Virus record (IMG/VR): IMGVR_UViG_3300032214_001459
Span: 1 to 64,000 of that record
DNA from: a virus
DNA length: 64,000 nt
Direction: 5' to 3' (one strand)
Part shown: one piece after another, positions 15,401 to 61,615 of the stretch
Layout of the letters: every line of letters starts with the position of its first letter
Numbering within the stretch: the first letter of the stretch is position 1
Translations under genes and position numbers: made by a program
The notes under the pieces: model-generated
The model's database searches: none
What the model was told of the DNA's origin: nothing
The model's input: the letters and a program-made list of their open reading frames with translations, nothing else

Positions 15401-18400
15401 TCTTCTTTGTTGGAGAACCTGCAACTTCGACTCTTGAGTGTCCAAGTCCTTTGAATATTTCGGCAAGTGATTCAATTGGTAGAATTTCTTCTTCAAGACT
15501 ATTAAATCCAGGGTGTGGACTAAACTTGTCCTCACTCATTTGCGCTATTTGTAGCAAGAAGTCAAGGAAGTCATTTGTAGATACAGGGGTTCCATCTTTC
15601 TTCTTTATTTCTGAAGCCAACTTGTAGATAAGTCTTTGGTCAATTGGGGTTGATGGTTCTTCCGGAAGAGAAGCTCTTTCAAAAGACTTTGCCACTCTCG
15701 TCAAAATTTCTTCATCGCTAACCATGCCGGAGCTCAATCCGAGAGCACCTCTCGACGTCATGCGGTTAAGAGCAGACCACTGTCTGTTAGACAACTGCCC
15801 GTTATTCTTGTAATACTGAGCCACAACACTGCGAGAGAAGTTATCTTTTCTCTGAGAGGCAAGACGTATTATCTCCCTCTTTTCGTCATCCGAAAGATTT
15901 ATCTTTGGCTGTGCACCAGATGAAAGAGATGCGCCATCGGCGATTCGTTTGGCTTTTTTCTTTTCTTCTTCTCTTTGGCGTTTGAGCAGAGCGTTGTATT
16001 CTATCTTTGAGTAAACTTGGCCATACATTGCCCTAAATGTTTGTGTTGCTCCGTCCCGTGCCCCTTCAGCTTCTGCTACGTAGTAGTGGTTTCCGTTATC
16101 GACGTAATCTTGCTCATATGCTTTTAGTTTTTCATACTGATTTTCAAGCGATATAACAATACTTCTGGCGGCCAATCTATTTTCTGCTTCTAGTACTTGT
16201 TCTGATGCTTTGGCTGCACCACTGGAGTAACCAGCTTCAAAATATCCACCGTTCTCGTGATAAATAGCTTGTTCTTTTAATTTATCTGAAACTTTTTGCC
16301 CATCAGAAATGTTCTGTTTCGTTGGTTTACGGCCACGTGGTAAGTCACGCTTTTTCGCTCCAGAAGAAAGTGAAGGAGAACTAGTTCCACTAGCAAAAAG
16401 CTCTCCAAGTTCACTCAGCTTCGATGAGTGGTTAACTTTTTCTGAACCAATGTTATATTTTTCTGCTAGCGCGAGCATCAACTTACCGTGACCACGACGA
16501 TGATAATCCTCGGGGACAAGGACGTCAGATATGGTCAGCTTGCCTCGATTTCCAAGCTCGCCCCCAGTGTCGGTGCGTGCGTGAAGGACGCCAACTTCCA
16601 ATCCGTTTGACCTCATTCTTACTGTGAGGTTCTGCTCCTCTGTATCATCAAATCTAGTTTTTAGTTCTGATTCTATGGACACCTTTATTGAGTCTCCATT
16701 TTTATCTTTAACAGTTAGTTGTACATCTCTATTTTTAATGCGATTTGATTCGCCAGAAACAGAAAGTTCATCTCTGTTAACCGCTATGGAAACCGAGTTA
16801 ATGTCTAGATTTGCCCTATTTGCTTTAATCCTGTCAATTACTTCGTTTAGATAGTCCCAACGACGACCGCCAGAACGTTCTGCGTGACCCACCGTCGGGT
16901 ATGGGGTCAGGTCTCTATTAACTATTTTCCACAAATCATGATTGATTGATTCTCTTGCCACCGGAAGTTTTTGGCCCTTTGGAATAACCGAGCCATTCTT
17001 TTTTAGTAATTCAATTATTTCATCCTCTGGCACTGGTTGACCAACGTTGTAGAAATCAATATTTGTTAAATCATCAATATCATTAAGAATCGTTGCGATT
17101 CTTTCGAATTCAGGAACCCCGTAGTAGTTCTCTATAACCTCAAACGTGTCTCCCTTATTGAACCAACCACCCCTATCCACGAAACGTCTGTATTCTTGGT
17201 CAAATATCAAATCTGATTTACCGACACCAAAAATTGGATACCATTTCCCTACTGGATTGGCCTTTCCGCCTTTGCCCGTGCTCTGGTAGAAGGGTATTCT
17301 TATTCCGTTTACATCAACAAGTGCCATTGGTCTACCGGCAACTGTGAAAATTGGAGACTGTATCTGCTTGCCTGTTTCTGGGTCTATTAAATCAACTTCC
17401 GCTATTTGTAAATCTAAATTACGCAAATAATCAATAGCAGAATTTACTTTTTCAAGTTGTTTTTTGCGTTCTTTTGGTGAGACTCTTGCCCCTGATGACA
17501 AAGATGGTGGCATGTCTTCTACATCGTCTGGAAGTGGCTCTATTAAGTCATTTACAAAGTTTGATAAATCCTCTTGTAGATTTCTTACTGGAGGATTTGA
17601 TGTTCCATCAAATTGTGTTGCTGCGGCAAATGCTCTACCGTCATCAGAAAGTGCAGAACTATGGTGAAGGTCTTGGTCGGGCCAGAAATCTCTCTGGTAT
17701 TTGAATAAGGCAGAAGCGAGTCCTCTCCTCTTGTGCTTGTCATCAATCGCAATTTCGTTAACTATTGATGTTGAATCTTCCCCAGATGGGGTCATGACTG
17801 ACATAGCCCCAACTAAACCATTTTTCTTATTTCTTATATATTTTTCATCTGTCATTCTACTTATTACGGATATACCGACTTCGTCTAGTGGTTTTCCGTA
17901 GAAGGAGAGAAGTTCTTGTTCTCTTTTTTCAACAAATGCATCGAGTTTTGTCTTTTCAAAAACATAAACATTGTCACCAAGTGGACCAGTAGCGAATATC
18001 ACATATTCTTTATTTTTTCCACTTTCATCCCTAAAGCTAATCGTGCGTATAGGTGTGGCAAAATTGTCATTTTCTCTATTATCTAAATCACTAACAATAT
18101 TTAACTTCTGTGAGCCAGATTCGGGAACGTTTAAGCCAGAAGCCAGGGAAATTGAGTAGTCAAGTCGAGCCAATTCTCTGTCTTCTTCTGAAGACGATGA
18201 GAATACCTGTTCCGATGCTGCTGAGTTTACTTCTCTCTTCGCTGAGCGCTGTTTAGATGTTCTGCCAGAAGATAGAGCGAGTTCTAGTGATTCATTATCA
18301 TCCCACGGTCTGCTTTCTGAACCATCACCAAGAAAACTTTCAATATCTTTTCTTAATTTTTCATTTATTGCATTTTTTCTCACCTCTTGGTTTGGGTGGA

Positions 18401-29567: not shown

Positions 29568-29586
29568 TTTATGTTATTGTTTTGCG

Positions 29587-29665
29587 CACGCAGAAGCATC
29601 AGCGGTAGAGCACCCGTGGAATCTAACGGACGGTCTCTGGGTTCGACTCCCAGACTGCGTGTCCA
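29587..29665 (+). tRNA. tRNA of uncertain identity
   Basis: Acceptor CACGCAG pairs with CTGCGTG and is followed by T and an encoded CCA. The T arm (TCTGGG/CCCAGA around TTCGACT) has six pairs, and a D arm (AGCGGTAGAGC) is recognisable. The anticodon arm is odd: CCGT pairs with ACGG and leaves an eight-base loop GGAATCTA without a clear T33. It abuts tRNA-Thr with no spacer, so processing would release both. The amino acid cannot be assigned safely. Confidence 0.6.
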
Positions 29666-29740
29666 GCCCCTTTAGCTCAGTGGTAGAGCACCTCACTTGT
29701 AATGAGGTGGTCCTCGGTTCAATCCCGAGAGGGGGCTCCA
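29666..29740 (+). tRNA. tRNA-Thr (TGT)
   Basis: Acceptor GCCCCTT/AGGGGGC, D arm GCTCAGTGGTAGAGC, anticodon loop CTTGTAA (TGT) and T arm CTCGG/CCGAG are all present, with an encoded CCA. It begins at the base after the CCA of the preceding tRNA. Confidence 0.95.
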
Positions 29741-34565: not shown

Positions 34566-34595
34566 GATTACCAATTCTCGCACATAAATGTCCGT

Positions 34596-34672: not shown

Positions 34673-36055
34673 TTACGGTGCCGTTGGAGCGTTGTCGAAT
34701 GTGACTTCAACGAATGCTTCTGGACGCTTGACAGCGAGAGCAAGTCTCTGTTCTGCCAAAACGACGATTGCGTTGCGCACGAAGAAGTCGCTGTGCTGTT
34801 CGCTGATGCGAATGCTTGCTTCTTCTCTGTCGTACAACTGAGCGCCGGTTCCGAACGCACCAACAAGTGCCTTGCCTTCGGTCATTGCTGGAGTGTCAAT
34901 GATTGGCATTCTCCATACCTTTGGCTCGCCACCCATTGCAACTGACACAGCAACCAAGTACTGGCCATTGCCATCCTTGGTCAACTCGATGTCTTCCCAA
35001 TCGTTCGGGTGCAACACGATACCCGATGGCTCGTAGTAAGCCAAGAAGGAGAGTGTTGCAGCACGACGGAGAGCGTCTGCCTTGGTGTCACCCATACCAG
35101 CTGTTGCCGAGTAGGCACCAGATGACCATGAGTATTGCTGAACGTTTGGTGTGTTCATGATTCCGAGGAGGTTTTCGCCAGCACCGTTACCGTTGAGGAT
35201 TTGATTATCCTCAAGAAGACGGAGACCGTACATCAACTCGTTGTCGATGATTGAGCGCAACTGTGGCTCATCGGCGAGGACGTTGCGGTGTGCAGCTTCC
35301 CAGTGTGCCAATGTGCGGATAGGAGCTTGCTCACCAACGAATGCGAATGAAGATTGTGGCTTCAAACCAAATGCTGTTCCAGCTGATGTTCTTTCAGCAA
35401 CTGATGATGCCGAGTTTACTCCAGCTCCAGCCTGAAGGGTTGTGAAACCAAGCTGACGGAAGTACTCGATAACTGCTGCGTTTGTTCTACGAACTGGGAA
35501 CAAGTCACGAACACGCTTCGTACGCATCGGAGGAAGAACCATTGCATCGCGCTGAACTGTTCCAAACTCACCGAGGCGGCTGTTTGTTACTGCAGTTGTT
35601 GGCAATGCTGTGTAAATGTCCTTCTGCTGAATGCCGAAGTTGTGTGTTGTCAATGAAGTTGCAACCTGCCATGGTGATGACATGTTTGCACCGTTACGAC
35701 CGTTAGCCAATGACTTGAATTCTGGTGAATCCAAGAACATCTGACCAATTGTCTTAACTTCATGTGAAGAAAGTTGTCTGAAGTCTGCTGATGCAGCTGC
35801 GTATGCGGCTGAAACAGTTTCTCCTTGTGGCTGATTTGACCATGACTCAACTGAGCCCATTGTCTCGAGGTCGGACAAGAGTGACTTAATTTCCTTGATG
35901 TCTCTCATGTTCTTATCGAAAGCTGTTTTCTGGTCTGCCGAAACTACAACAGTTCCTTCTTCGATTTTGAATGAATCTGCAATGGCCTTGTTTTCTGCCA
36001 TCTTACCGCGAAGAGCTGATTGCAACTCTTCTGTTCTTGCTGTGTCTTGCGACAT
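34673..36055 (-). CDS. HK97-fold major capsid protein
   Basis: The 460-aa protein fits the HK97 family. It has a charged helical N-terminal region (1-95) like the scaffolding delta domain, then TIGQMFLDSPEFKSL, the usual start of the mature chain, and the later segments VRDLFPVRRTN, EYFRQLGF and VLHPNDWEDIELTKDGNGQYL (A-domain) typical of the fold. L-S-S at residues 95-97 marks where the delta domain should be removed by the prohead protease. AGGAG lies 8 nt before ATG 36055. Codon use looks more G/C-ending than in neighbours, as expected for high expression. It is followed by a terminator. Confidence 0.93.
   Translation of the reverse strand: MSQDTARTEELQSALRGKMAENKAIADSFKIEEGTVVVSADQKTAFDKNMRDIKEIKSLLSDLETMGSVESWSNQPQGETVSAAYAAASADFRQLSSHEVKTIGQMFLDSPEFKSLANGRNGANMSSPWQVATSLTTHNFGIQQKDIYTALPTTAVTNSRLGEFGTVQRDAMVLPPMRTKRVRDLFPVRRTNAAVIEYFRQLGFTTLQAGAGVNSASSVAERTSAGTAFGLKPQSSFAFVGEQAPIRTLAHWEAAHRNVLADEPQLRSIIDNELMYGLRLLEDNQILNGNGAGENLLGIMNTPNVQQYSWSSGAYSATAGMGDTKADALRRAATLSFLAYYEPSGIVLHPNDWEDIELTKDGNGQYLVAVSVAMGGEPKVWRMPIIDTPAMTEGKALVGAFGTGAQLYDREEASIRISEQHSDFFVRNAIVVLAEQRLALAVKRPEAFVEVTFDNAPTAP
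35765..35773 (-). other. Leu-Ser-Ser at the expected capsid cleavage point
   Basis: Codons for L95-S96-S97 of the major capsid protein lie three residues before KTIGQMF, the usual beginning of the mature HK97-type chain. The same tripeptide is the core of the L-S-S-G sites in the giant proteins. Cleavage here is inferred. Confidence 0.5.
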
Positions 36056-40682: not shown

Positions 40683-41182
40683 TATTCTTCAATCTCCCTG
40701 AGCATGGACATGGCTGTCCATATAGACTTTCTCTCCTCGGTTGAGGAAAATCGCATTAATTTGTTCTCAATAGACTTTACCACTTGTCCGTCGCAGCAAG
40801 ATTTACCAGATAACTGCTCTATTGATTTACTAAATCTTGAAGCATCTTCATTTTTCTGAGAAATACTTCTCTTATTTCTGCCAAGAGATGTTTGCACGGA
40901 CACTCCATCTAGAACTTCTTTCGGTATCTCTTTACTTTTTTGAATAAATATCATTTCCCATGTTTCTTTATTCTCGCCATCGTCACCATCCCAGAAAACC
41001 TTGTGGAATGGGGTTGTTTTGATTCTCTTTATGTTTCGAGCTCTAGCGACATGTGACTGAAAATCTACCATCATTACTGTTCCATCATCTTTTTCTATTG
41101 CCCCATCCATGTCGTCTGCAGAGGCGTCCAAGATGTAATAAAGCTTGCTACCACCAGATGAGCCAACTAGTGCCGCTTTCAT
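40682..41182 (-). CDS. Hypothetical head-region protein (166 aa)
   Basis: It starts MKAALVGSSGGSKLYYILDAS, a beta-rich beginning, and ends in a helical charged part. KSCCDGQVVKSIENKLMRF is the only Cys-containing segment. No family recognised. It overlaps the end of the 2567-codon gene and the start of the 214-aa gene, so it is part of the same coupled unit. Confidence 0.5.
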   Translation of the reverse strand: MKAALVGSSGGSKLYYILDASADDMDGAIEKDDGTVMMVDFQSHVARARNIKRIKTTPFHKVFWDGDDGENKETWEMIFIQKSKEIPKEVLDGVSVQTSLGRNKRSISQKNEDASRFSKSIEQLSGKSCCDGQVVKSIENKLMRFSSTEERKSIWTAMSMLREIEE

Positions 41183-48902: not shown

Positions 48903-50546
48903 TTAGTCGATGTTGTTTTCGAGAAGCTGGAATTCAACAAGGGCCGCCATGAAATCTGCATCATTTACAACCTCGTCACTCTTTTCCTTGCTTCCTGCGA
49001 GCCAATTTGCAGGGATAAGACTCTCCAACTTTAGCTCACGTGCTCTCTTCATGATGTGACGCTTAGCTTTGTCTTTATCCTTTGCTCTACCAAAAGCTTG
49101 AACAGCATTTCGTAGGTCGTTCTCAGATGCAATTGGGTACGAGCCATCTGGCATCGCCGAGCCCTCTTTGGACATCGACTCTCTCTGCTCATCGGTGAAT
49201 GCTCTCTTAAGAGCAATCTCTGCTGCTTCTGCTTCAATCTCTTCTGCTTCTTCTGGCTCGTACTTGTCGTAACCGAGAATTTCTCCGTCCAAAGCAACAA
49301 AAACGTCATACGACTTTCCGTCAATTCCGTCAATTTCTACAGCGTATGCATCGAAGCCTTCAAAAACATCTGGCTCAACAGCAACTACGTGGCCTTCGAT
49401 TGACTTAACGGCAATCTCTGCTGCTTCAGAAAAATCGACAAGCTTCAAACTCGTGTAGTCCGACTTCTGCTCAAATTCTTCTGAGTCAAGTTTATGGAAT
49501 CCCATAATCTCAGCAGTTGTTCCATCAACGAACACTTCTTTTACTGAGCCGTCTTTCGTCTGTACGTCGATGACGAACATGTCAGCGTCTGATGAATATC
49601 CAGAGTCAACCACGAAGCCATCGAATGCTTTTTCGGCAAGTCCCTCAACATGGAGTAGTCCTGGAAGACCCTTCTCTGATACACAACCGCCTGGGCAGTC
49701 ATCGCAAACCGACATTCCTGCAGGGTGCGCTTTTCTGTCAAGAGCACAAACAAAACCATCAATGCCGATTTCTTCGGACTTGATTCCGAGCGAAGCAATA
49801 CGCTCTTCTCTTAGGTTGTTCCAGTCTTCGTCTGCTGCATTAAAAAGAACTTGTTCATCAACTTCTTCCTCGGACTCAAGACCTTTCTCTGACATTTTCT
49901 TCATTTTGCGAACGTAATTCAATGCCTTCATAATGTCGTCTTCTGACATTTCATCTTCAGGAACTTCTGTTTCTGCTGACACTTCTTCATCGATTTCTTC
50001 GTCAACAGCCATGCCGCCCTTTTCGCCCATGCGACGACTCTTCATCCAGTTAAGCGCCTTTTCAAGCTCCTCTTCCGAAACGTCTTCATCGCCCATATCT
50101 TCTGCGACTACTTCTTCTTCATCTTCTTCTTCATCTTCTTCTTCATCTTCGTCGTCCTCTGCCATCATGTCCACCATCTGTGTGTCCATGCCTTTTTCTT
50201 CCGGCTTCTTAAGGTCTGGCTTCGTCATGCCAACGGCATCTTCTGGGACTTCACCGTCTCCAGTTACATCTTCTGATTCTTCGTCTTCTTCTTCGTTGCT
50301 TCCGTCTGGAAGAGAAATCATTTTCTTCTTCTTCTTTTTTGGCATTGAATTTTCAGCATCAACCATGTCGGCGTCGACCATGTCCTCCATAGGAACCATC
50401 TTCATCTGTAAAGGTGTTGCGCCACATTTTGCGCATAGTTCTGCACCCTTTACAAAGCCACATTCGGTAGGGGCGGCACCCTTGGCGCACTTCAGCACGT
50501 TTCCATCAGCATCGATGCTTACATTGGCCTTTTCGTCGTAGCTCAT
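48903..50546 (-). CDS. Acidic scaffold-like head protein with DUF6582-type C-terminus (547 aa)
   Basis: An N-terminal part with two Cys pairs (LKCAKGAAPTECGF, LCAKCGATP) is followed by a very acidic middle (runs of Asp/Glu near residues 85-220), then repeats of a beta-rich unit (EIAVKSIEGHVVAVEPDV, YDVFVALDGEILGYDKYEP). The end is a module widespread in phage capsid-associated proteins (GSAMPDGSYPIASENDLRNA, AFGRAKDKDKAKRHI, then a short linker and NW). An acidic, helical protein beside the protease and portal genes is likely a scaffold or internal head protein. Start at 50546, with AGGAG 4 nt upstream; the frame from 50570 lacks a site. It has its own TATAAT promoter. Confidence 0.65.
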   Translation of the reverse strand: MSYDEKANVSIDADGNVLKCAKGAAPTECGFVKGAELCAKCGATPLQMKMVPMEDMVDADMVDAENSMPKKKKKKMISLPDGSNEEEDEESEDVTGDGEVPEDAVGMTKPDLKKPEEKGMDTQMVDMMAEDDEDEEEDEEEDEEEVVAEDMGDEDVSEEELEKALNWMKSRRMGEKGGMAVDEEIDEEVSAETEVPEDEMSEDDIMKALNYVRKMKKMSEKGLESEEEVDEQVLFNAADEDWNNLREERIASLGIKSEEIGIDGFVCALDRKAHPAGMSVCDDCPGGCVSEKGLPGLLHVEGLAEKAFDGFVVDSGYSSDADMFVIDVQTKDGSVKEVFVDGTTAEIMGFHKLDSEEFEQKSDYTSLKLVDFSEAAEIAVKSIEGHVVAVEPDVFEGFDAYAVEIDGIDGKSYDVFVALDGEILGYDKYEPEEAEEIEAEAAEIALKRAFTDEQRESMSKEGSAMPDGSYPIASENDLRNAVQAFGRAKDKDKAKRHIMKRARELKLESLIPANWLAGSKEKSDEVVNDADFMAALVEFQLLENNID

Positions 50547-50605
50547 ATGACTCCTGAAATTTGCAGGCAATCACCAGTTGGTGTCACCGTTTGTTAATGG
50601 TCTAA

Positions 50606-50686: not shown

Positions 50687-53600
50687 TTACTTCTTGTCTT
50701 TATCTTTCTTAAGGATAACTCTTTTACCGAGTTCGGAGGCGTCATCTCCATACAGAGTCCTGCCTTCCTCCCTCAATCTCTTTGTTGCATTGCGTAATTG
50801 TTCAGCACTAAATATGTCATCAATCTTGTAGTTAGTTCCAAAAATTTCATTAAAACGATTTACAACATTCTGTAGTTCGCCCTGACTGAATCTTCTTTCG
50901 TCACCAGTTTTCTTTGAGAATGTGGCTCCCTTTCTGGCAGCAACACCCTTGTGGGAGACCGTGAAGTCAGAAGAATTAAGGATGTAGTCCCTATTCCGTC
51001 TAGTGTTTTTGGCTTTATCGGCAGCGTGCTTTGACTGAGTAAATTCATACAGGGCTTCATACACGGAGTGCTTCGATGCTGCCAGCTCTTGGTCTAGCTT
51101 TTTGCCAGATTCATCTTTCTTCCATACCGACTTTGCATCAGGAATCATCCCTGTTCTAATCATCTCATTTATATATGTAGTTGGGACTCCACCGGCCTCC
51201 CAGTTCCTGGCAATCTCTCTCGTATTCAGGCCGACATCGTCAACCCCGAAAGACTCGACCATTCTCCTCTTAAGCTCTTCATGCCACTTATCGCTCTTAT
51301 CGATACCAAGTGATTCAAGGAGCTGGTCTACGTCAAACTGCTCTCGGCTGGTCTTGTCTGATGGGGCTGAAGCTGCTTCTACGACAGACTGCTTAACCAG
51401 GTCGCTTGGAGTGTCATCTCCACCAAATACTGCCTCTTCAAGAAGCATCTCTTCGGCCATTGAACCAAATTCAGACTCACCGCGCTTCTTGCTGAATATT
51501 CCAGTAGACCTGAATTTTCCGGTTTCACTTACTTCGCCAAGTGAGGCATATTCCTTTTGACTTATTACGCCGTTCTCTTCCTTGTCAATCCAATAAGGGA
51601 ATGCGTCCTTGCCGAATGTCTCGATGATGAATCTGTCGCGCATATTGGCTCTACCAAGGTTTTCGACGAACTTTTCGGATGGGGTCATTTCACTGACTCC
51701 TTCTTCTTTTTCTGACGTTGGGGCGAATAGTCTCCAGGCATCAAACCCATCCTGCTTGCCAATTTCTGAAAGCAAGAAACGAACTGCGTCGTGGGTTACG
51801 CCAGCGTCGTCATCTGAAAGTTTTGCAATATCTGATTTACCTAGAGCCAGCATCTTCCCAAGCTCGTCGTTGTTCAGCGGACGTGTCTGTGTCCAACGCG
51901 CAATCATTCTACTGTTTGGGTTGTCTGGGTCCGATGGGTAGCTAGAGAACTCGGTTGGAATTCTTACTGCATCCCTAAGTTTTGAAACAGGGACAAACCA
52001 TTCGTCTGGGTTTACTTCATCTTTTATTTGATTTGATGAAACTTTCCCAATTTTAACCTTTGGTCTTGCGGCCATGCCCTTAGATACTGAATTGATTACA
52101 TTCTTTATTTCGATGTTTTTCCGTTCAGCTGTTGTGTCTTCTGGGTCAAGTGCGATTCCGCGCTCTCTAACTCCACGCCAAAACTTCATTGCGTATTCGA
52201 GTTTGCGCTTTGCCTTATCGTTTCTTCTAGGGTCACCGTCAATGCGTATTGCCGCAAGGTCGCGAGGGCCAGCTATATTCGCGGCAAATTTCTTTCCGCT
52301 AACACGCTGATTTTTTGCTCCAGCACCGATATCGTCGCTGCCACTTGAAAGGCTTATTGCTCTCAGTCTTCGCGCGTATCTACCCTCGGGGGTATTTGCC
52401 CCAGAGGCGAGAGCTAGGTCGTCGAATTCTTCTGCAGATGGAGCTGGCTTGCGCTTTTTAGGGACCTTTTTTGAACGAAGTATGTTCCTATCTGCAACGC
52501 TTTGTCTGTCTTGTTCGTTGAATGGAAGGCGTCTATTTGCTCTATTTGTCTTCTTTTTAGCTCCTGAAGAAAGAGACAGAGAAAGTAAATCAGAATCGTC
52601 GCCGTTATCTCCGTCGTATTCATCGTCATCCGGTCCGGCTACATCTTTGAAATCAGGGTCACCAGAGTCAAAACCGCCAGATTCGTCCTCCACTTCTGGT
52701 TCATCATCTTCTTCTGGAGCGACATCTTTAGTCTTTCCCTGTGACTTGACGTATCTATCGAAAGACTCATCCAATCTCTTTCTGCGTTCTTTTCTGGCAG
52801 CATCGCGTGCTTCTGTATCACCAGAGTAAGGAACGTAGAAACCAGCAGGGGCCTGAAGCTCGTCATATATTCCATCTGGATTTTCTGCAATTTTATCTTT
52901 TGCACTTTTTATAGATGCATTTTGTGAATCATCAAAATAAAGTTTTGCAAGAACTGCGCCAATATCTATTTGCTCTTGAGCTCTGGTTATTGCAATATAT
53001 ACCTTGTTGTGCTCTTCTCTGCGCATCAATTGCAGCTGTCTCTCGACAGCAAGTCTGTCCTTTGGACTTAACTTTGCTAATTCTTCTTCTGGTATTACTG
53101 GGACCATGTCTTCAGGATTTTTGAAATCATCAGCGAGTCTGACCCTCTTCCACTCCCTGCCCTTGGAAACATGAACCGTCATAATGTCGGTATCTGTGTT
53201 CCCTTCCGTGGCAAGTTGTCTAACCCTATTTCCTAGTTCATTGGCAAGACGCGCAGTTTCTTCGCTGTCTTTTCCTTGTATAAAGAACCCAGGAAGCGAA
53301 GCTCTTGGCACAGAACTATCTGGTAAATCACCTTTCATTGGTGGGACAAAATCATCGGGTGTGTCTGATGGGAATGTCTGAGCTGTACCAACTTGCTGTA
53401 TTAGTCCCTGCCTAAATTCAATTACAGCATCTGGGTATTCTGCTTTCATCTTCTTTATGACTTTTGATATATCTCCGTGATAATCAATTTTTCCTGGTTT
53501 CCCATCTTCGATAGGGCCCCATGTTTTTTTAACTTTGTTCCATCTTCTGAACTTGTACTTTCCTCCATTTGCTCCTTCGCCAGCGATTATCAATGCCCCG

Positions 53601-56600
53601 GATGGCTTCCCATCATCTCCAATATGAAGTTTTACGAACACCTCACCATCAGACACGCTCTCTTCTTTTTTAGGTATTATCCAAGAGATTTTCTGGCTAC
53701 TTCCAGCTTTTGTTCCAGGCTTAAGTTTCCCAACTCTGTCCATCTCGTCGGTAGTTATATAATCTTTACCAGATTCCATGTCAGGAAGGTTTATACCCTC
53801 GCGCATTGGTCTTAATCCCTGATACTTAATCTCATTGCCATTTATGTCTGTATATTTTTGGCCCTGTGGACGGAGAAGGTCTTTAAAGAACCTAGCCCCC
53901 TTCGCATCTCCTCTTACTCCGCCATCCTTTGATTTAGGGTATGCAAGGTTGTGTAAAGTCCGGAGTTCTGATTCTCCACCCTTAATCATCTTGTCAATTT
54001 TTGCCAACATCTCGTCTTTTGATGGGTATCTGCCCTTTTTCTTGTCAAATCTCCATACGTCTTTAAGTAGTTTCGATGGTTTTGGTCTTCCTTCGATTCC
54101 AAACTTCTTATCTAGGTCGCCAACAATCCAGTCGAGCTGAGTGAAGAAATCAAGAAACTTTTCATGCGTATCCGCAGGTATGCCTATGGCTGGAATTTTT
54201 CCGTCAGCTCCACCTGGGGCGTATTCATCTCTAAGCTCGTTGATGGACTTGAGCATCGAGTCTCTTCCATCTTTTTCCAGTATTTCTATAAGGTCTACAG
54301 CGACACCATCGAGGGTGTACTTCTCGGAAACTGTTCTCAATCTTCCAGCTAGCTCTTGTGGATTTTTTATATCTTCTATTCCGTCAAGGTCCAGGTATGC
54401 AATTTGATGCGCATTGATGCCATCCTGGATTACCTTCAATGCTTCAACCATTACTCCTGAGTTAGTCGAAGTTAGAACAGCATCGGCGCCAGTCATGTCC
54501 TCCACTATCTGACCTTCAGCGCGTGGAACATGTTCGTCGTAAAGTTTTGAAATGATGTCTTTTACTTCTTTTTCGTTTTTGCCCTTAAAGTCGACCGCTC
54601 TTCCGCCAAGCTTGTATTTAACTTCTATGAATCTAAGTTTCTTTTCAAGGTCTTTTTTAGGAAGTATTTTCCCATCTGGTCCGTTTATGTTGAGCGCGTT
54701 TATAACAACATTTTGCGCCTCGCCGACAACATGGTGCCATATGTTTTTTTCTGGTGTTCCCATGTTTTGATAAAAGTTAAAATCGTCTATATTGCCTTGC
54801 ATCAGCACGACATTGGCCAAATATGCAGGCATTGCTCCATACCGGAATGAACGTGTTAGAGGAAGTCTGAATGTTGCATTAGCTTTCTCCAGGGCATCCA
54901 TGGCTCCTCTGAACCCATAGATTGCTTGACGTGAGTCGCCGACCATTATTATTGGCATGTTCTTTGCATTGTCGGCAAGTACTTTTGCCAATACGGGGTT
55001 TACGTCTTGGGCTTCGTCGAACATGAATACATCAAGAGGCTTATCACTCGTAACAGAAACAATCGATACAGTTCCGGTTACTTGTCTATTACCTGACAGC
55101 TCACCCTTTTTTGTTTCTTTCTTCGATGGAGGATTTAGCTTCCGTATTACTGCGGCAACCTTTTCTCCAGTTTCTGGAATCTTGAATTCTACAAGGTCAC
55201 CAACCTTTATCTTTCCTGCATCCATGTCCTCAACGGTTCCAAGTTTGACTTTATCAAATACAGTTTCGTTTGGTCTATGGCCAATCAAACCTTTGTCATA
55301 CCTGAGGTCTGGATTTGTTAGGGCCCACATCTTGATTTGATAGTCCTGCGGGATGAGCACGTTTGATTTTGGGTCAACTGTTTCATCCCAAAGCATTTGT
55401 GCATATTGAACCATTTTTTCATCGATTGAATCTTCGGTTGGTACTGGTTCGCCCTTTTGTAATGCCTGAATTTTTTCTATATCACGAAGTAGGAAATGTT
55501 GTTTTGACAGCTTCTCATCCGAACTTTCAGCAAACCTGCCAAGAGCTTTTTTGAGATTTTGGGAAATAGTAAAACCATCATCAGTTTCTTCGTCAACAAT
55601 CCCATCTTTAGAAAGGCGTTCTGCGATATTCGGTGCAGAGTCATAGCTTGTGTACCCAAGCTCTCTGTACCCTGGTATCTCTCCTGTGAATTCCTTTGTT
55701 TCTCCCTCAAACGTGGTTGCAACGTTTACGGTGTTACGTTTTGCTCCTCGCAACTTCTTAGAGTCTCTTGGACCAACTCCAAGCTGTATCTTTCTAGTCG
55801 TTCCAGCCCCATAGAACGCATCTCCAGTTCCAAGAACAAGTGACCAATAAGCTATTTGGTTACCGGTTGCAACACCTGTATTTCTAGGCATTACTCTGTT
55901 GCCGTCTTTTGCATTTCCCCTGTTAAATACTGTGTAGTAAATTTGCTTACCAGGGTAAAGTGCTGCAACAGCACGAGCATTCTGCTTGAGGTTAGTGGTC
56001 TTTCCGGAACCAGCGCCTGCACCAATTGCAACAATTCCTGATGTCTCACTTTCCAACATATGAACAAGCGTGTCTATTGAAGCCTTTTGTTGTTCTGTTG
56101 GTTCAAATTCATCAGGAAGGAACTTATACTTTTCTCTATACGAGACAGAGTCGTCTAGTCTTGGAATCGTTGTTTTACCGTCAAGGCTGACGATTGGTTT
56201 TGCACCACTCGAAAGAGAAAGTGCTCCAGATTCATCAAGAATCCTTCCACTGGAGTCTCTTTGAGTTATGCCTGAGCCATATTCTTTTTCATCGCCAAAG
56301 TATCTAAGTTCTTTTACTTTTCTAACACCAACTTGAGTGCCAGATGAAAGAGCGATTACAGAGTCCTTTGCCTCATCGGTTGCAGCGCCAACAGCTTCTG
56401 TGGCTTTTTCTGTAACATCTGGTTTACCTTTGCGCTCAGTGTCTGGAACACCTGCAAGTCTCCTCATCGTTGGAGACCTATCCATAATGTAATCAGCGGC
56501 TTGCTGCGCTTTTTCCATCGCCTTAATAAATGCGCCTGGGTCTTCTTTGAGGTTTGAAATCCAACTCTTTATATAGACAACATGGTCTTTTCTTACTTCT

Positions 56601-59600
56601 GGTGTTATTCCGACTGCTGCTAGAAGAAATGAAGAACCCATTTCTGCAATCAGCTCCTCTGATGCACGAATCTTTTTATTTTTTCCGTAATCTCTTACAG
56701 TTTGCCTATCTATACGTGCCGCGCCACCTGTCCAGTGAGTTAGTTCATGGAAGAGTGTTCCGTAATACTGTTCTGGAGACTTGAACATTTCGTACAAAGG
56801 CATCTGTATTAAATCTTCGCTTGGGGAAAAGAAAGCCCCATCTCCACCAAACTTAATGACTGGCTTAATTTCTTCTATTACTGCCTCAGCATCTTTTATT
56901 TTAAGTGCAGGGTCAAGACGTTCTTTGCCAACATCCAACAGCTTCTTTACGTATGCATCTGGGAGACCTTCAATGTCGTCCAAGTTGTATACAGTCTGAA
57001 CAATAAAATATTTACCAGTAGAACCCTCTCTCGGGACAAGGATATTTACCCCATCCTTGCCATCCTTCACCTTCCCACCGAACTTCGCCCATTGCGTTTT
57101 GCCAGCCCAGAAATTTCCCCTGTATTTATTTTGTCTATGAGAATTAGCGAGCAAGAGTGAGTTCATGCCCTGGTATAGGCGACTTCTTGTTGGGTTTTTT
57201 GCGTAAAGAGTAGGGGTTCTCCAAGGTACGTCCCAGTACGTTGCAGTTGGATTTTTTTCCATCTCGATGAGAGCTTCAAGAATGGACTTTCCTATTTCGT
57301 CATAAATCTTTTTATTTTCACCAGATGACAAAGAAAGACCATCAGCCTTATCGGCCAAGGTTTTTGATGCTGGCTTGTCGCCAAAGACACTGCCAGATGA
57401 AAGAGCCAAGTTGTACTCAGGGACCTTGTTGGTGTCTGACTCCATCTTCTCAATAGGAACACGACGCTTGGATTCTTTGCCAGCAGAAGCAATATCTTCA
57501 ATGTACTTTTCTGTTATTGCAGAACGAGCATTCCAGAGAGAATCCTGTTCTTTGGAAATCATTCTTGTTGCTACGTCGCTAGCTTCAATATTCTTCTTAT
57601 CTTTAATCGTGGATACACGTGAATACTTATTTATGTCGCCAATCCACTCATACGACCTATCGCGGATTGCTTCTAGCTTTCCTGCTTCATTGCTTCCAGG
57701 CTTTACTGACTCAAGTCTTACATTCGTATCCCGAACGGTTGCCTTGTGCTTTGCTAAAGAGCCATTGTTGAGAGCATCCATGGCATCATCAACGATGTCC
57801 ATATAATCCTGGAACTCATCGTCTCCACCAGTAACCAGGTCAAATGCCTTCTTTGTGTCAAAGCCATTAGCTTCAACTATTCCATCTCCACCGAGCATGT
57901 CTGCAATATCGGTTGTTATGTCATCTTTGATTAGAGGGTTCTCTTCAAGGTAATCATGCACCTGGTCGAGTAATCCGTTTCCTTCATCGGTTGTTGTTAT
58001 GTCGTAGTTGTAGTAGTCGCGACCCCTACCACCAGAAGAGAGGGATGGGCTCTCTTCTGTCGCTGGCTTCGATGGGAGATTTCTTGAGTCTCTGCTTACG
58101 AGCTTTCCGCTACGTCTATCAACGAGTCTGTCTGCAAATTGATTTCCCTTGCCGAGCTTCCAGTATTCTTTGTTTTCACTATTGAGGTTTGCTGGCTTAA
58201 GGCTTGCCTGATATGCGAGTTCGCCAATTTCGTCAGCATAAACCTCGTCCCATTGCGCAAGGATTCTGTTGGTTCCCTTGTCTTTCCCTGTATTTATTTT
58301 CTGCTCAGCTCTGACGTAGTAGAGGTCTGGAACAGAGTTATACCCGATGACTACTTGCTGGTCCTTTGTGGAAGGAAGAATCATTTCATTCCCTCTACGC
58401 TCAACGCGGCCACCGGATATAGCCATTATGTTCCCTCTGCCAATTTGATTCATTGTTTCGCGAAGGTCGAATCTGTCTGGCTCATATCCTCTAGAAGTGG
58501 CCCAGTCGTCGCTTGCCCCAGAAGAAAGTGATACGCCGTCTTTTTCTTTGCGCATTTTGCGCATGTGTCGTTGTTCGCGCTTTCTAACTTCCATTCTAGT
58601 TAGACCAAGCTCTTCCGCAACATCTTGCAGAGAAGCTCCAGTTGTCATTCTCTTGCGATAAATCTCTTCATCACTCATGTCTTTTGGCTTTTTGCGAGAA
58701 GTGACTTTTGGTCTTTCTTCTTCTGGGCCCATCATGTCAAGAAGAGTGTCGTAGAAATCTACATTTGTATCGCTCTCGTAATTTTCTTCGTCAAAATTTG
58801 GTCTTGTATCGTCGTCTGCTCCAGAAGAGAGGGAGAGTGAACTTCTCTTCTTTGCTTCTTTTTTCTTTCTTAATGGGACTGGCGATAATGAGTCAAAACC
58901 GTATTGACGCATCCAGTCGGATAGGCCATCTTTCCCATCTGGACCAATACCCCTAAATCCAGTTGCATCTGGTCTGTTGTTATACATGAATTCATGCATC
59001 GCATCTTCCATGCCGTTGTAGAATTCGTTGTCATCACCACGTGATGCTTCAAGGAAGGTGCCAGCGCGCATAACCATTCCCGAATACCAATCTCGGTAAT
59101 CGACAGAGGAAGTGTTTTTATCGCTAAATTTTGCTGGACGTCTATTTGTATCGTCACCAAGCCACATGACTCTGGCTTGATTGACGCCCATCTCTCTTCC
59201 GCGTAGGTAATCAGGGGACCTGTAGGCATCTGGCTTATATCTAGGAACATCAGTCCAGCCGTACCCGGAGTCTTTCCAGTCTTTAATTACTTCTTCAAAC
59301 TTCTTACGCTTTTCAAGTTCTTCCGGAGATACAAGTGACTCAAATTTTGGGTCACCAGAGTGGCGGGTGAGTCTCTTTTCCTGCTCACCAGAAGATAGCG
59401 ATGGTGTTTTTTCTTTATCGGTTTTTGGCTTCTTGCTGAAGTCGAGTTCACCGCGTTTTACTTTTTCCTTCTTTGCAGGAGCTTTCTTCGCAACTGCTTT
59501 CTTCGCAGCTTTCTTTACTGGTTTTGCGTCGCCATCGAGAATGTCACTTACATCATCTGCTTCGTATTTTGGTTCTCTACTGGTAATCGTTTTGCCAGGC

Positions 59601-61507
59601 TTCTCCTTGCCGCCTTCGCCAGGGATATTTGCAACGTCTCTTCTTTGTGATGAGGAAAGCTTTGGGTTATTGACTGAACCAGGTCCGTCTGGAGTTGGGT
59701 CTGGTTGTTCCCATCCTGGGATGTTGTCAAAAAGAGTTCCGTCTCTGTTCTTGTCGACTCTTGTTCGCGGGTCAAGGTCGCCTTCCGGCATACCAAATCC
59801 ACGACCCCTGCGTTTGCCGCCACCGATATTTGGTCTATCAATTGCTCTTGAGCCGAGCGACCGACCTATTCTGTAACCGAGGGCTTTACCCTCTATCTCA
59901 TGTTCTGAGAATTTTTTTTTTAAGTTGTGGAGAGCCGTATCGACTGCGTCTATGAGGTTTTCAGTTACCCCGGAGATAATGACTATTCCTTCTGAGTCAA
60001 CAAAAGTCTCTGCTCTGTGGTAATCAAATATTGGGTCAAGGGCTGTTTTTACTCTAAATGCAAAACTTGGCTCGACTGGTATTACGTACGACTTCTCACC
60101 CATATCATCGTCATCGCCGAACTCTGCAAGATTCTTGTACTTGTTTCTTTTCTTCTTTTTCTTGCCAACCGCATTTCTAACAATTCCAAGAACAAACTCG
60201 CCTGGATACTTGAGTTCAAGAACATCAATAATTGCATTTTCTGCTTCGGAAACATGCTCTTCAAGTTCTTTGGAGCCACTGCTCAAAACAATTCCATTTG
60301 GAATAACTGCAAATCTGCATTTTCCTTCTGGTTCGACTGGCATGTCAATGATTTTGCACTTTGAGCCGCCTTGGTAGAAGACGCAGTTTGAGCACTTAAC
60401 ACCGATGCGTGCTACTTCGTTTTCTTCTGCAGGGCTATATCCAGCCCATACACCGTTTGAATCTTCATTGAATTTACCGTGGCGTGAAACTATCTTCAGC
60501 AAGGCATCGCGAAGGTCTGCCTCTTCCTTATCCAAAGATGGTTTTGCGTTTGAATCATACTGAACTGCAGGAAGAGGAATCATTGTTAGTCCATCGCCAC
60601 TTGGCTTTACGGCGACTGGTATGGATGGCATCTGTTGAGGTCTAATCACGCGCTGTGGCTCGTTTGCCGGCATAGGCCTTCCGCTAACCATAGGCATAGG
60701 TGCTGACTGTGGAGTGCGAACTGGAGACTGTGGAATGCTGATTACCTCAGGCGTCCCAAACATGTATCGACCTTGGCTTCTCATGAAGCCACACTTGTAC
60801 TTCTTGGCACCACTCATCTCGTGGCGCGTGAATACAACTTCGTCACCATCTATTGAGTGAACAGAAACTTTCGCGCCAAAAAGATTTGAAAGTTCTTTTT
60901 CCATTTCTTCGTAGCCGTTGCTCTCATCCCTCTGAGGCATCATCGCGATAGGAGTTCCATATGCAGAATCGTCTGCCTTTACGGATATCGTTCCTGTCAG
61001 CTGATTTGCTCCGTGCAGAACAGGGCTGACTTCATAAAGTTCAACTTCATAAAGAATATTCGCTTGTGCCTTTTGGTCAAACTGAGCTCTTAGGGTCTTA
61101 TAGCCAATAGACCACTCTTGTTCTTCCCCAAAGAAAGCAACGTTAAGAAATGCCTCTTTGCCTTTTTCTGAATTCAAATTGAACTGGACCTTTGCGAACA
61201 AACCGCCTATGCCAGCAATCTTCATTTTCAACGGAAGACGTGGGTCCTGTGGTCCAACCTCGTAAATTTCTAGAACTTTTCCGATAGGGTCGTTCCAGTT
61301 GTGGCCCCATACAACTCTTGGCTTTCTGCGGAGCAGACTCTTAGTAAAAGCCCCCGAAGCACAAACATCACCAACTGAGTCTTTATTGCCAATTCCGGCC
61401 ACGAAGCATTCGACTATTCCCTCGGCCTCATCAAGATTGATTGGTCCGTTTACTGACTTTGCGCCATGTGCCGACGTTGCTTTGTATTCGAATGCTTCAT
61501 TTGACAT
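50687..61507 (-). CDS. Giant polyprotein (about 3607 aa): prohead protease, ArdC-like zincin, UvrD-like helicase
   Basis: Residues 1-180 are an HK97-type (S78) prohead protease with the catalytic His69 (WGHNWNDPIGKV) and Ser133 (EEQEWSIGYKTL). Then come the DRPNIGG/DGTLFD module (about 545-610), an H1-like Lys/Ala stretch (about 665), a small HTH domain (SDEEIYRKRMTTGASLQDVAEELGL folded near 940), an ISGGRV-type phage domain (about 1000-1110), an ArdC-like zincin (FHELTHWTGG near 1587), a UvrD/RecB-type helicase with all motifs (1766-2980) and an undefined C-terminal 550 residues. Twelve L-[SA]-S-G sites and one LSSS variant separate them. Fusing a prohead protease to such cargo is unusual. 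I use ATG 61507; a TTG four codons earlier is possible. Confidence 0.85.
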   Translation of the reverse strand: MSNEAFEYKATSAHGAKSVNGPINLDEAEGIVECFVAGIGNKDSVGDVCASGAFTKSLLRRKPRVVWGHNWNDPIGKVLEIYEVGPQDPRLPLKMKIAGIGGLFAKVQFNLNSEKGKEAFLNVAFFGEEQEWSIGYKTLRAQFDQKAQANILYEVELYEVSPVLHGANQLTGTISVKADDSAYGTPIAMMPQRDESNGYEEMEKELSNLFGAKVSVHSIDGDEVVFTRHEMSGAKKYKCGFMRSQGRYMFGTPEVISIPQSPVRTPQSAPMPMVSGRPMPANEPQRVIRPQQMPSIPVAVKPSGDGLTMIPLPAVQYDSNAKPSLDKEEADLRDALLKIVSRHGKFNEDSNGVWAGYSPAEENEVARIGVKCSNCVFYQGGSKCKIIDMPVEPEGKCRFAVIPNGIVLSSGSKELEEHVSEAENAIIDVLELKYPGEFVLGIVRNAVGKKKKKRNKYKNLAEFGDDDDMGEKSYVIPVEPSFAFRVKTALDPIFDYHRAETFVDSEGIVIISGVTENLIDAVDTALHNLKKKFSEHEIEGKALGYRIGRSLGSRAIDRPNIGGGKRRGRGFGMPEGDLDPRTRVDKNRDGTLFDNIPGWEQPDPTPDGPGSVNNPKLSSSQRRDVANIPGEGGKEKPGKTITSREPKYEADDVSDILDGDAKPVKKAAKKAVAKKAPAKKEKVKRGELDFSKKPKTDKEKTPSLSSGEQEKRLTRHSGDPKFESLVSPEELEKRKKFEEVIKDWKDSGYGWTDVPRYKPDAYRSPDYLRGREMGVNQARVMWLGDDTNRRPAKFSDKNTSSVDYRDWYSGMVMRAGTFLEASRGDDNEFYNGMEDAMHEFMYNNRPDATGFRGIGPDGKDGLSDWMRQYGFDSLSPVPLRKKKEAKKRSSLSLSSGADDDTRPNFDEENYESDTNVDFYDTLLDMMGPEEERPKVTSRKKPKDMSDEEIYRKRMTTGASLQDVAEELGLTRMEVRKREQRHMRKMRKEKDGVSLSSGASDDWATSRGYEPDRFDLRETMNQIGRGNIMAISGGRVERRGNEMILPSTKDQQVVIGYNSVPDLYYVRAEQKINTGKDKGTNRILAQWDEVYADEIGELAYQASLKPANLNSENKEYWKLGKGNQFADRLVDRRSGKLVSRDSRNLPSKPATEESPSLSSGGRGRDYYNYDITTTDEGNGLLDQVHDYLEENPLIKDDITTDIADMLGGDGIVEANGFDTKKAFDLVTGGDDEFQDYMDIVDDAMDALNNGSLAKHKATVRDTNVRLESVKPGSNEAGKLEAIRDRSYEWIGDINKYSRVSTIKDKKNIEASDVATRMISKEQDSLWNARSAITEKYIEDIASAGKESKRRVPIEKMESDTNKVPEYNLALSSGSVFGDKPASKTLADKADGLSLSSGENKKIYDEIGKSILEALIEMEKNPTATYWDVPWRTPTLYAKNPTRSRLYQGMNSLLLANSHRQNKYRGNFWAGKTQWAKFGGKVKDGKDGVNILVPREGSTGKYFIVQTVYNLDDIEGLPDAYVKKLLDVGKERLDPALKIKDAEAVIEEIKPVIKFGGDGAFFSPSEDLIQMPLYEMFKSPEQYYGTLFHELTHWTGGAARIDRQTVRDYGKNKKIRASEELIAEMGSSFLLAAVGITPEVRKDHVVYIKSWISNLKEDPGAFIKAMEKAQQAADYIMDRSPTMRRLAGVPDTERKGKPDVTEKATEAVGAATDEAKDSVIALSSGTQVGVRKVKELRYFGDEKEYGSGITQRDSSGRILDESGALSLSSGAKPIVSLDGKTTIPRLDDSVSYREKYKFLPDEFEPTEQQKASIDTLVHMLESETSGIVAIGAGAGSGKTTNLKQNARAVAALYPGKQIYYTVFNRGNAKDGNRVMPRNTGVATGNQIAYWSLVLGTGDAFYGAGTTRKIQLGVGPRDSKKLRGAKRNTVNVATTFEGETKEFTGEIPGYRELGYTSYDSAPNIAERLSKDGIVDEETDDGFTISQNLKKALGRFAESSDEKLSKQHFLLRDIEKIQALQKGEPVPTEDSIDEKMVQYAQMLWDETVDPKSNVLIPQDYQIKMWALTNPDLRYDKGLIGHRPNETVFDKVKLGTVEDMDAGKIKVGDLVEFKIPETGEKVAAVIRKLNPPSKKETKKGELSGNRQVTGTVSIVSVTSDKPLDVFMFDEAQDVNPVLAKVLADNAKNMPIIMVGDSRQAIYGFRGAMDALEKANATFRLPLTRSFRYGAMPAYLANVVLMQGNIDDFNFYQNMGTPEKNIWHHVVGEAQNVVINALNINGPDGKILPKKDLEKKLRFIEVKYKLGGRAVDFKGKNEKEVKDIISKLYDEHVPRAEGQIVEDMTGADAVLTSTNSGVMVEALKVIQDGINAHQIAYLDLDGIEDIKNPQELAGRLRTVSEKYTLDGVAVDLIEILEKDGRDSMLKSINELRDEYAPGGADGKIPAIGIPADTHEKFLDFFTQLDWIVGDLDKKFGIEGRPKPSKLLKDVWRFDKKKGRYPSKDEMLAKIDKMIKGGESELRTLHNLAYPKSKDGGVRGDAKGARFFKDLLRPQGQKYTDINGNEIKYQGLRPMREGINLPDMESGKDYITTDEMDRVGKLKPGTKAGSSQKISWIIPKKEESVSDGEVFVKLHIGDDGKPSGALIIAGEGANGGKYKFRRWNKVKKTWGPIEDGKPGKIDYHGDISKVIKKMKAEYPDAVIEFRQGLIQQVGTAQTFPSDTPDDFVPPMKGDLPDSSVPRASLPGFFIQGKDSEETARLANELGNRVRQLATEGNTDTDIMTVHVSKGREWKRVRLADDFKNPEDMVPVIPEEELAKLSPKDRLAVERQLQLMRREEHNKVYIAITRAQEQIDIGAVLAKLYFDDSQNASIKSAKDKIAENPDGIYDELQAPAGFYVPYSGDTEARDAARKERRKRLDESFDRYVKSQGKTKDVAPEEDDEPEVEDESGGFDSGDPDFKDVAGPDDDEYDGDNGDDSDLLSLSLSSGAKKKTNRANRRLPFNEQDRQSVADRNILRSKKVPKKRKPAPSAEEFDDLALASGANTPEGRYARRLRAISLSSGSDDIGAGAKNQRVSGKKFAANIAGPRDLAAIRIDGDPRRNDKAKRKLEYAMKFWRGVRERGIALDPEDTTAERKNIEIKNVINSVSKGMAARPKVKIGKVSSNQIKDEVNPDEWFVPVSKLRDAVRIPTEFSSYPSDPDNPNSRMIARWTQTRPLNNDELGKMLALGKSDIAKLSDDDAGVTHDAVRFLLSEIGKQDGFDAWRLFAPTSEKEEGVSEMTPSEKFVENLGRANMRDRFIIETFGKDAFPYWIDKEENGVISQKEYASLGEVSETGKFRSTGIFSKKRGESEFGSMAEEMLLEEAVFGGDDTPSDLVKQSVVEAASAPSDKTSREQFDVDQLLESLGIDKSDKWHEELKRRMVESFGVDDVGLNTREIARNWEAGGVPTTYINEMIRTGMIPDAKSVWKKDESGKKLDQELAASKHSVYEALYEFTQSKHAADKAKNTRRNRDYILNSSDFTVSHKGVAARKGATFSKKTGDERRFSQGELQNVVNRFNEIFGTNYKIDDIFSAEQLRNATKRLREEGRTLYGDDASELGKRVILKKDKDKK
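52574..56203 (-). other. UvrD-like helicase segment bounded by LSSG sites
   Basis: Between the LSSG codons at 56204-56215 and 52562-52573 lie about 1210 residues with a complete set of superfamily 1 helicase motifs: GAGAGSGKTTN (Walker A), FMFDEAQD (Walker B), MVGDSRQAIYGFRGA, LTRSFRYG, TVHVSKGREW and YIAITRAQEQ. The domain is intact, so it should be active as an ATP-dependent DNA translocase, perhaps to protect or process incoming DNA. Confidence 0.8.
56351..57319 (-). other. ArdC-like metallopeptidase segment bounded by LSSG sites
   Basis: Sites coded at 57320-57331 and 56339-56350 bound 323 residues resembling ArdC/antirestriction proteins: an N-terminal part (YWDVPWRTP, YRGNFWAGKTQWAKFGG), FIVQTVYNLDDIEGLP, zinc-binding HELTHWTGG and the downstream EELIAEMGSSFL Glu. 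ArdC-type proteins are carried by conjugative elements and protect incoming DNA. The exact size match to one ArdC protein is notable. Confidence 0.75.
59690..59880 (-). other. Shared DRPNIGG/DxDxDGT module, copy 2
   Basis: This segment of the prohead-protease polyprotein matches residues 27-90 of the 2706-aa giant almost block for block (DRPNIGG, RRG, GDL-x-PRTRVD, DGT-x-FD, PGWEQPDPTP) and is also followed by a K-L-S-S element. A shorter relative (DRDGDGTVFDG) is in the 503-aa protein near 33900. Confidence 0.75.
60287..61507 (-). other. Prohead protease segment up to the first LSSG site
   Basis: The first LSSG (codons 60275-60286) comes about 407 residues after the start. The S78 protease domain fills the first 180; the remainder contains a Pro/Met-rich linker (about 245-300) and a Cys motif (GVKCSNCVFYQGGSKCKI near 370). 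Self-cleavage at this LSSG would free the protease; inferred. Confidence 0.6.
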
Positions 61508-61615
61508 TTTTGGAACCAACTTCTCTCGGCTGCTAGTCGATATTAAACGAAAAACATGTTCCAGAATGTAAGTATTTTAAAAAACTGAATGTTTTACAGA
61601 AATAGTTTAATGAAA

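What the first reader, a model, noticed from the sequence alone, without database searches (positions are those of the whole stretch)
50687..61507. Prohead protease fused in one frame to an ArdC-like zincin and a UvrD-like helicase
Phage prohead proteases are usually 180-600 aa and sometimes fused to the capsid or scaffold. Here the frame runs on for about 3400 further residues holding effector-type domains with intact motifs. It would ensure that cargo is made in fixed ratio to the protease and placed inside the procapsid.
Basis: partly seen in the sequence, partly recalled or inferred. Interest (0 to 1): 0.85.

Follow-up and report, generated by a model that had tools for sequence, protein, structure and literature searches.

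The report
Phage polyprotein with recurring predicted cut-sites
A phage head-maturation protease sits at the front of one giant gene that strings together anti-defence proteins separated by a repeated short motif; two other giant genes of the same phage carry the same motif, so the virus probably makes its head-packed proteins as precursor chains cut apart by one protease, as many RNA viruses do.

Summary
The frame is real: 50687-61519(-), 3610 aa, one uninterrupted frame of Peptidase_S78, then ArdC/MPTase-PolyVal, then UvrD helicase. A short motif, mostly [SA]-L-[SA]-S-G, recurs 12 times between the modules, and again in two other giant ORFs of the window: 12489-20609(-) (10x) and 41179-48882(-) (4x). 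The 26 sites use 23 different DNA encodings, so selection acts on the protein. About 150 related viral loci show site-bounded cassettes that are inserted, lost and reordered; the ArdC cassette matches whole ArdC. Lineages have their own site "dialect" (SLSSG, RLSSG, KLSSG, GLSSG, xFSSG, LRSSG, GLAS, GLRS, GMRSR) on a common core [LFM]-x-S, usually shared by the separate giant proteins of one genome. Best explanation: three polyproteins cut by one trans-acting protease, most likely the N-terminal S78 prohead protease, releasing about 29 products for the head interior and injection. Cleavage, the protease's identity, packaging and injection are inferred, not shown. The major capsid protein carries no dialect site, which is the main weakness. 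A new variant of the known "polyvalent protein" theme.

The parts
60278..61507 (-). Polyprotein A, product 1 (res 5-414): S78 prohead protease followed by an invariant four-cysteine segment
   Evidence: Pfam S78 res 35-178; H73, S137 and four Cys invariant in 27 sequences
59390..60277 (-). Product 2 (res 415-710): carries the RPNIGG...DPRTRVDxxxDGTxFDxxPGWEQPDPTP module, also at the N-terminus of polyprotein C
   Evidence: 60% identity over about 95 aa to 20292-20573(-); segment clustering
58823..59389 (-). Product 3 (res 711-899), cassette c7 of unknown function
   Evidence: site-bounded cassette in 15 loci
58520..58822 (-). Product 4 (res 900-1000), sigma70 region-4-like
   Evidence: Sigma70_r4 2.6e-4, below its curated cut-off, in the window; 8 of 13 relatives, best 3.3e-8
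58034..58519 (-). Product 5 (res 1001-1162), unknown
   Evidence: cassette c11
57395..58033 (-). Product 6 (res 1163-1375), unknown
   Evidence: cassette c12
57323..57394 (-). 24-residue spacer between two sites (res 1376-1399)
   Evidence: sites at 1373 and 1397
56342..57322 (-). Product 8 (res 1400-1726): complete ArdC anti-restriction protein (ArdcN + MPTase-PolyVal)
   Evidence: PDB 6sna/6i89 E about 1e-67 over ArdC residues 8-296; Foldseek 3.7e-16; sites lie in pLDDT<50 flanks
56207..56341 (-). 45-residue spacer (res 1727-1771)
   Evidence: sites at 1724 and 1769
52565..56206 (-). Product 10 (res 1772-2985): UvrD-like SF1 helicase
   Evidence: Pfam UvrD-helicase; PHROG DNA helicase 3.8e-36
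52403..52564 (-). 54-residue peptide (res 2986-3039), cassette c9
   Evidence: found in 12 loci at different places in the polyprotein
52343..52402 (-). 20-residue spacer (res 3040-3059)
   Evidence: sites at 3037 and 3057
50687..52342 (-). Product 13 (res 3060-3610): conserved module c3 of unknown function
   Evidence: present in 28 of 28 loci compared; not last in L072/L075
41179..48882 (-). Polyprotein B (2567 aa): 4 sites (res 278, 1261, 1366, 2176); CPPGTP module, zincin HEIAH, weak ParB-like match, a RelA/SpoT-like stretch by eye
12489..20609 (-). Polyprotein C (2706 aa): 10 sites; RPNIGG module, DnaQ-like exonuclease, two HExxH zincin motifs, two GNATs
48903..50570 (-). 555-aa acidic protein between A and B, no site; scaffold candidate (inference); a similar protein lies at this place in L116
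61616..63685 (-). Portal protein, immediately upstream of polyprotein A
   Evidence: PHROG 1.8e-62
34673..36055 (-). Major capsid protein; no dialect site
   Evidence: PHROG 5.2e-57

Best explanation
A three-polyprotein system. ORFs A, B and C are synthesised as precursors of 2.6-3.6 thousand residues. A serine prohead protease (S78), itself the first module of A, cuts all three at a short site with the core [LFM]-x-S, in this phage mostly [SA]-L-[SA]-S-G, most likely after the second Ser. This would release about 29 products and spacer peptides: 13 from A, 5 from B and 11 from C. Products include whole ArdC anti-restriction protein, a UvrD helicase, zincins, GNATs, a DnaQ-like exonuclease and a sigma-region-4-like domain. 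The precursors would be drawn into the procapsid (perhaps by the RPNIGG and CPPGTP modules), cut during head maturation, and the products injected with the DNA to counter host defence and start infection. Shown here: frame, domains, sites, their selection at protein level, cassette structure, and dialect sharing between separate ORFs. Inferred: cleavage, exact scissile bond, S78 as the enzyme, packaging and injection.
For: (1) SLSSG occurs 15x in the three ORFs vs 0.024 expected; 27 [LFMIV][SA]SG matches vs mean 3.9, max 10, in 300 dipeptide shuffles. None of the smaller window proteins checked has LSSG/LASG; across the loci giant ORFs carry 2.56 per 1000 aa vs 0.49 for other ORFs. (2) 23 of 26 sites have different nucleotide sequences; motif conserved 0.96 vs 0.78-0.84 for flanks in the close clade. 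(3) Site-bounded segments form cassettes gained, lost or moved whole. ArdC spans 316-418 aa between sites in every relative listed and equals whole ArdC; the model puts both sites in pLDDT<50 flanks. (4) Dialect shared in trans: A vs B/C match 0.75 vs 0.44 for shuffled pairings, 0 of 5000. Examples: G008 C-type ORF mostly FSSG, G003 RLSSG; G022 GMRS 15x in A and 15x in the C-type ORF, 0.04-0.06 expected each; G025 GLSSG in A and B. (5) 12 of 12 S78-fused representatives with a strongly enriched k-mer have the core [LFM]-x-S, a P3-x-P1 format like A-x-E of SPN3US gp245 (PMC10052503). (6) The L116 polyprotein has S78 and 8 [LF]xSR[RN] sites (0.21 expected) but no HExxH zincin.
Against: No proteomics: cleavage is not shown. 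The major capsid protein, the usual S78 substrate, has no site and its delta-like N-terminus does not follow the dialect. P1 would be Ser, not the Glu of T4-type enzymes. Site avoidance of annotated domains is only modestly significant (P=0.03), with two sites inside PHROG alignment ends. The permutation does not correct for relatedness: L>F is essentially one clade and several loci are near-identical. Dialect sharing is not uniform: some B-type ORFs show few dialect sites (G023, G026, G027). Several S78-fused ORFs of about 1000-1500 aa show no strong motif. No usable model of the S78 part was obtained (mean pLDDT 45).
Confidence: 0.72

Rival explanations
1. The sites are cleavage sites, but an embedded zincin (MPTase of ArdC, or the zincins of B and C) cuts them, as Iyer et al. 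2017 proposed for polyvalent proteins.
For: An HExxH zincin lies in A, B and C of the window; MPTase-PolyVal in 13 of 13 relatives scanned; PMC5512222 argues for zincin autoprocessing.
Against: The L116 polyprotein has dialect sites but no HExxH, though a zincin could act from another ORF not fully read. The P3-x-P1 format resembles prohead proteases. The S78 module is in every A polyprotein.
Confidence: 0.12
2. The motif is not cut; it is a docking or linker motif that tethers each module to the capsid interior or scaffold.
For: A short linear motif in predicted disordered linkers, repeated between modules and shared between ORFs, would also fit a binding motif.
Against: Sites bound complete proteins such as ArdC; 20-24-residue spacers lie between adjacent sites; a protease is the first module; the core matches the P3-x-P1 format.
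Confidence: 0.1
3. An ordinary giant multidomain polyvalent protein, with LSSG repeats as neutral linker sequence or remnants of DNA-level cassette recombination.
For: Giant polyvalent proteins are widespread (PMC5512222); cassette shuffling is evident.
Against: 23 of 26 sites differ at DNA level; the dialect changes together in separate ORFs; neutral linkers would not keep a four-residue core.
Confidence: 0.05
4. Assembly artefact joining separate genes.
For: None found.
Against: Many independent contigs carry the continuous frame.
Confidence: 0.01

Closest known systems
Polyvalent proteins (Iyer et al. 2017, PMC5512222)
   Same: Phage-encoded multi-effector polypeptides with peptidase (zincin MPTase), GNAT, ArdC-N and other effector domains, predicted to be packaged and injected; the authors draw the analogy to RNA-virus polyproteins and foresee processing by embedded peptidases.
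   Different: [quoted passage not shown] here S78 is N-terminal. The passages read mention no recurrent site, lineage dialect or several polyproteins sharing sites.
Prohead-protease maturation of packaged proteins (SPN3US gp245, PMC10052503; phage P1 Pro/DarA, PMC12810830; T4 internal proteins from general knowledge)
   Same: A phage protease cuts head and ejection proteins at a short P3-x-P1 motif in trans.
   Different: In SPN3US the substrates are separate genes, 13 of 14 mapped sites remove N-terminal propeptides, and the motif is A-x-E. Here many whole proteins sit in one frame and the motif ends in Ser.
Viral polyproteins (picornaviruses, potyviruses; African swine fever virus pp220/pp62 in a dsDNA virus)
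   Same: Precursor with several products, virus-encoded protease, recurrent short sites.
   Different: A tailed dsDNA phage of bacteria; effectors rather than replicase or shell proteins. Comparison from general knowledge plus titles and abstracts only.
Gordonia, Brevibacterium and Streptomyces phages with related S78 proteases (DalanDe, GMA6, Cantare, Gilgamesh, ScarletRaider)
   Same: S78 module 36-41% identical, next to the capsid gene; Gilgamesh also has a 4624-aa ORF upstream.
   Different: No enriched [LFM]xSG-type motif in their large ORFs; the protease gene is 420-650 aa except in DalanDe, where the ORF is about 1630 aa.

Membership tests
Peptidase S78 (PF04586) | HMM match above gathering score | tested here: met
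   41.5 bits vs 21; 13 of 13 relatives match at E<=0.01
Peptidase S78 (PF04586) | conserved catalytic His and Ser | tested here: met
   H73 (GHNWNDPIG) and S137 (EWSIGY) invariant in 27 sequences; assignment as catalytic is from knowledge of the family
Peptidase S78 (PF04586) | proteolysis during head assembly | not testable with these tools
   needs protein experiments; major capsid protein lacks a dialect site
Polyvalent proteins | two or more unrelated effector domains in one phage polypeptide near structural genes | tested here: met
   ArdcN, MPTase-PolyVal, UvrD, S78 between portal and capsid genes
Polyvalent proteins | assemblin-like peptidase, when present, at the C-terminus | tested here: not met
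   S78 is N-terminal; the rule is in PMC5512222. An occasional feature of the class, not its definition
ArdC anti-restriction protein | full-length homology to ArdC with HExxH | tested here: met
   PDB 6sna/6i89 E about 1e-67, residues 8-296; Foldseek; HELTH
Virus polyprotein | recurrent protease-site-like motif at product boundaries | tested here: met
Virus polyprotein | demonstrated cleavage into products | not testable with these tools
   no proteomics held for these uncultured phages
T4/SPN3US-type prohead-protease specificity | short P3-x-P1 motif | tested here: met
   [LFM]-x-S core in 12 of 12 strong cases; that it is a cut site is inferred
T4/SPN3US-type prohead-protease specificity | P1 Glu | tested here: not met
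   position is Ser; so not claimed as that subtype

The most novel reading that the evidence does not exclude
A widespread group of tailed phages uses an RNA-virus-like expression strategy: one prohead protease matures several giant polyproteins made of interchangeable effector cassettes, and the protease specificity and dozens of sites have drifted together into lineage-specific dialects.
Probability: 0.65. Interest if true: 0.9.

Novelty: new variant of a known kind. Interest (0 to 1): 0.82.

Why it matters
It would mean that the anti-defence arsenal of a large group of uncultured phages is made, loaded and released as polyproteins. The site dialect then gives a practical tool: cutting at [LFM]-x-S splits giant unknown ORFs into single effectors, many of them new, with predicted termini. 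It also makes prohead-protease specificity testable, because natural protease and site pairs with different dialects are now listed.

Tried and rejected
Assembly artefact: rejected by relatives in many contigs. DNA-level repeat: rejected, 23 of 26 encodings differ. Chance linker composition: rejected by dipeptide shuffles. A dialect site in the major capsid protein: looked for in ten dialect groups, not found. Protease residues co-varying with the L>F or S dialect: a few positions (e.g. res 54), too few clades to judge. AlphaFold of the S78 part: failed for lack of alignment depth (mean pLDDT 45). PDB sequence relatives of the S78 part: none convincing. The RPNIGG and CPPGTP modules against the phage collection: no match. 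Literature: no paper found with LSSG plus phage protease cleavage site, or with 'phage polyprotein'; four papers hold both 'prohead protease' and 'polyprotein', of which the two read in part do not describe this. The library is open-access only, so absence is weak evidence.

Full report
OBSERVATION. The window lies in a 64,429-base virus record. ORF 50687-61519(-) is one open frame of 3610 codons from an in-frame TTG, or 3606 from the ATG at 61507. It lies between a portal gene (61616-63685) and further genes of the same strand, with the capsid gene at 34673-36055. Pfam finds Peptidase_S78 (35-178), ArdcN (1403-1495), MPTase-PolyVal (1543-1668) and UvrD-helicase/UvrD_C; PHROGs finds an anti-restriction protein (6.5e-63), DNA helicase and head maturation protease. 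Seventy-seven viral contigs from many samples encode relatives, many over the full length, so the frame is not an assembly accident.

THE UNREPORTED FEATURE. Reading the frame shows a short motif between the modules...TPSLSSGEQ......SLSLSSGAD......NLALSSGSV..., twelve times. Two other giant ORFs of the window, 12489-20609(-) and 41179-48882(-), carry it ten and four times; no smaller protein examined does. In an unbiased k-mer count over the three ORFs, SLSSG is the top word: 15 seen, 0.024 expected. Dipeptide-preserving shuffles give 3.9 on average and at most 10 of the wider motif against 27 seen. The 26 sites use 23 different DNA sequences, so the amino acids are under selection.

CASSETTES. 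Cutting 28 loci at the motif and clustering the segments gives modules that behave as units. The protease module is first in every A polyprotein. ArdC, helicase and the conserved c3 module are present in nearly all, but their order changes: in L072/L075 c9-c3 lies before ArdC and helicase; in L025/L041/L048 a helicase-cluster segment precedes ArdC. L003/L005 have an extra 85-residue cassette; L004 lacks cassette c7. The ArdC module is 316-418 residues between sites in the relatives listed. In this window residues 1400-1726 correspond to entire ArdC (PDB 6sna/6i89 residues 8-296; Foldseek). The AlphaFold model of this piece is folded in the middle, with both sites in stretches of pLDDT below 50.

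DIALECTS. The residues around the core differ by lineage but tend to agree between separate ORFs of one genome. The window clade uses S/A-LSSG, L013/L015/L019 mainly R-L-[SA]-SG, L072/L075 KLSSG, L029/L033/L057 xFSSG. Matching A against B/C of the same phage gives 0.75 similarity against 0.44 for shuffled pairings, 0 of 5000 (not corrected for relatedness). The third giant ORF agrees where it could be read: mostly FSSG in G008, RLSSG in a 5254-aa ORF of G003, SLSSG in G002. More distant S78 relatives show further dialects: GLSSG, LRSSG, GLAS, GLRS, GFSSxT, GMRSR. G022 has GMRS 15 times in A and 15 times in its 2557-aa ORF; G025 has GLSSG in A and B. Agreement is weaker in G023, G026 and G027, whose B-type ORFs hold few dialect sites. 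Of 15 S78-fused representatives, 12 have a strongly enriched k-mer and all 12 contain [LFM]-x-S; no shuffled protein reaches that strength. The marine relative L116 has eight [LF]xSR[RN] sites (0.21 expected), duplicated cassettes that start right after the site, and no HExxH zincin. Marine L117/L118 have a stand-alone protease of about 440 aa.

MECHANISM. A shared short site, changing in step in separate proteins, is best explained by one trans-acting enzyme. S78 is the best candidate: it is the first module in every A polyprotein, it is an assembly protease by family, and the core has the P3-x-P1 format of prohead proteases (A-x-E for SPN3US gp245, PMC10052503; [LI]-x-E for T4 from general knowledge). 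By that analogy the cut is after Ser: L-[SA]-S|G. About 29 products follow. Packaging and injection are inferred from operon position and from cargo type (ArdC, zincins, GNAT, DnaQ-like, helicase), which matches polyvalent proteins (PMC5512222). Prohead-protease cutting of a head-packed anti-restriction protein has a precedent in P1 DarA (PMC12810830).

WEAK POINTS. Nothing here shows cleavage. The capsid protein carries no dialect site in ten dialect groups, so S78 may not use this site on the capsid, or may not cut it. Sites avoid annotated domains only at P=0.03. Some shorter S78-fused ORFs have no clear motif. A zincin as the cutter, or a non-cleaved docking motif, remain possible.

PLACE AMONG KNOWN THINGS. 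It is a polyvalent-protein system by content. It differs in the N-terminal protease, the recurrent site and the several precursors sharing it. Hence 'new variant of a known kind'.

Noticed in passing
33054-34583(-); P0003 res 545-615; P0002 res 20-100: A DxDGDGTxFDG-type stretch (EF-hand-like by eye) recurs in polyproteins A and C and, more loosely, in a 509-aa ORF just downstream of the capsid gene; it may be a head-targeting tag.
   Followed up: partly
38045-40141(-); 41179-48882(-) res 230-255: The CPPGTPxANQFTD...GSNCF stretch of polyprotein B has a looser copy (RCPEGYQYGGRFTDSRLSTCG) in the 698-aa ORF.
   Followed up: no
41179-48882(-) res 1974-2176: Stretch resembling a RelA/SpoT-type synthetase by eye (YQGINIAAVHPDGTRFELQFHT); Pfam gave no match, PHROGs only an unnamed family and head morphogenesis.
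   Followed up: no
L116 9944-18037: Marine relative with its own dialect, a KTSC domain and two paralogous cassettes each starting after a site; its sequence holds masked N runs.
   Followed up: partly
L113 3952-19714: 5254-aa ORF with nine RLSSG/RLASG sites, the largest polyprotein seen.
   Followed up: no
L117, L118: Marine relatives with about 52% identical S78 as a stand-alone gene of about 440 aa and no such motif: possible state before fusion.
   Followed up: partly
27636-29740: Cluster of four tRNA genes (Arg, Asn, Ser, Thr) on the + strand; a fifth (Met) at 7780-7853(-).
   Followed up: no
L013 2214-16344: 4710-aa A polyprotein with UvrD-type helicase matches in two separate regions (about 2214-2279 and 3207-4080).
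   Followed up: no
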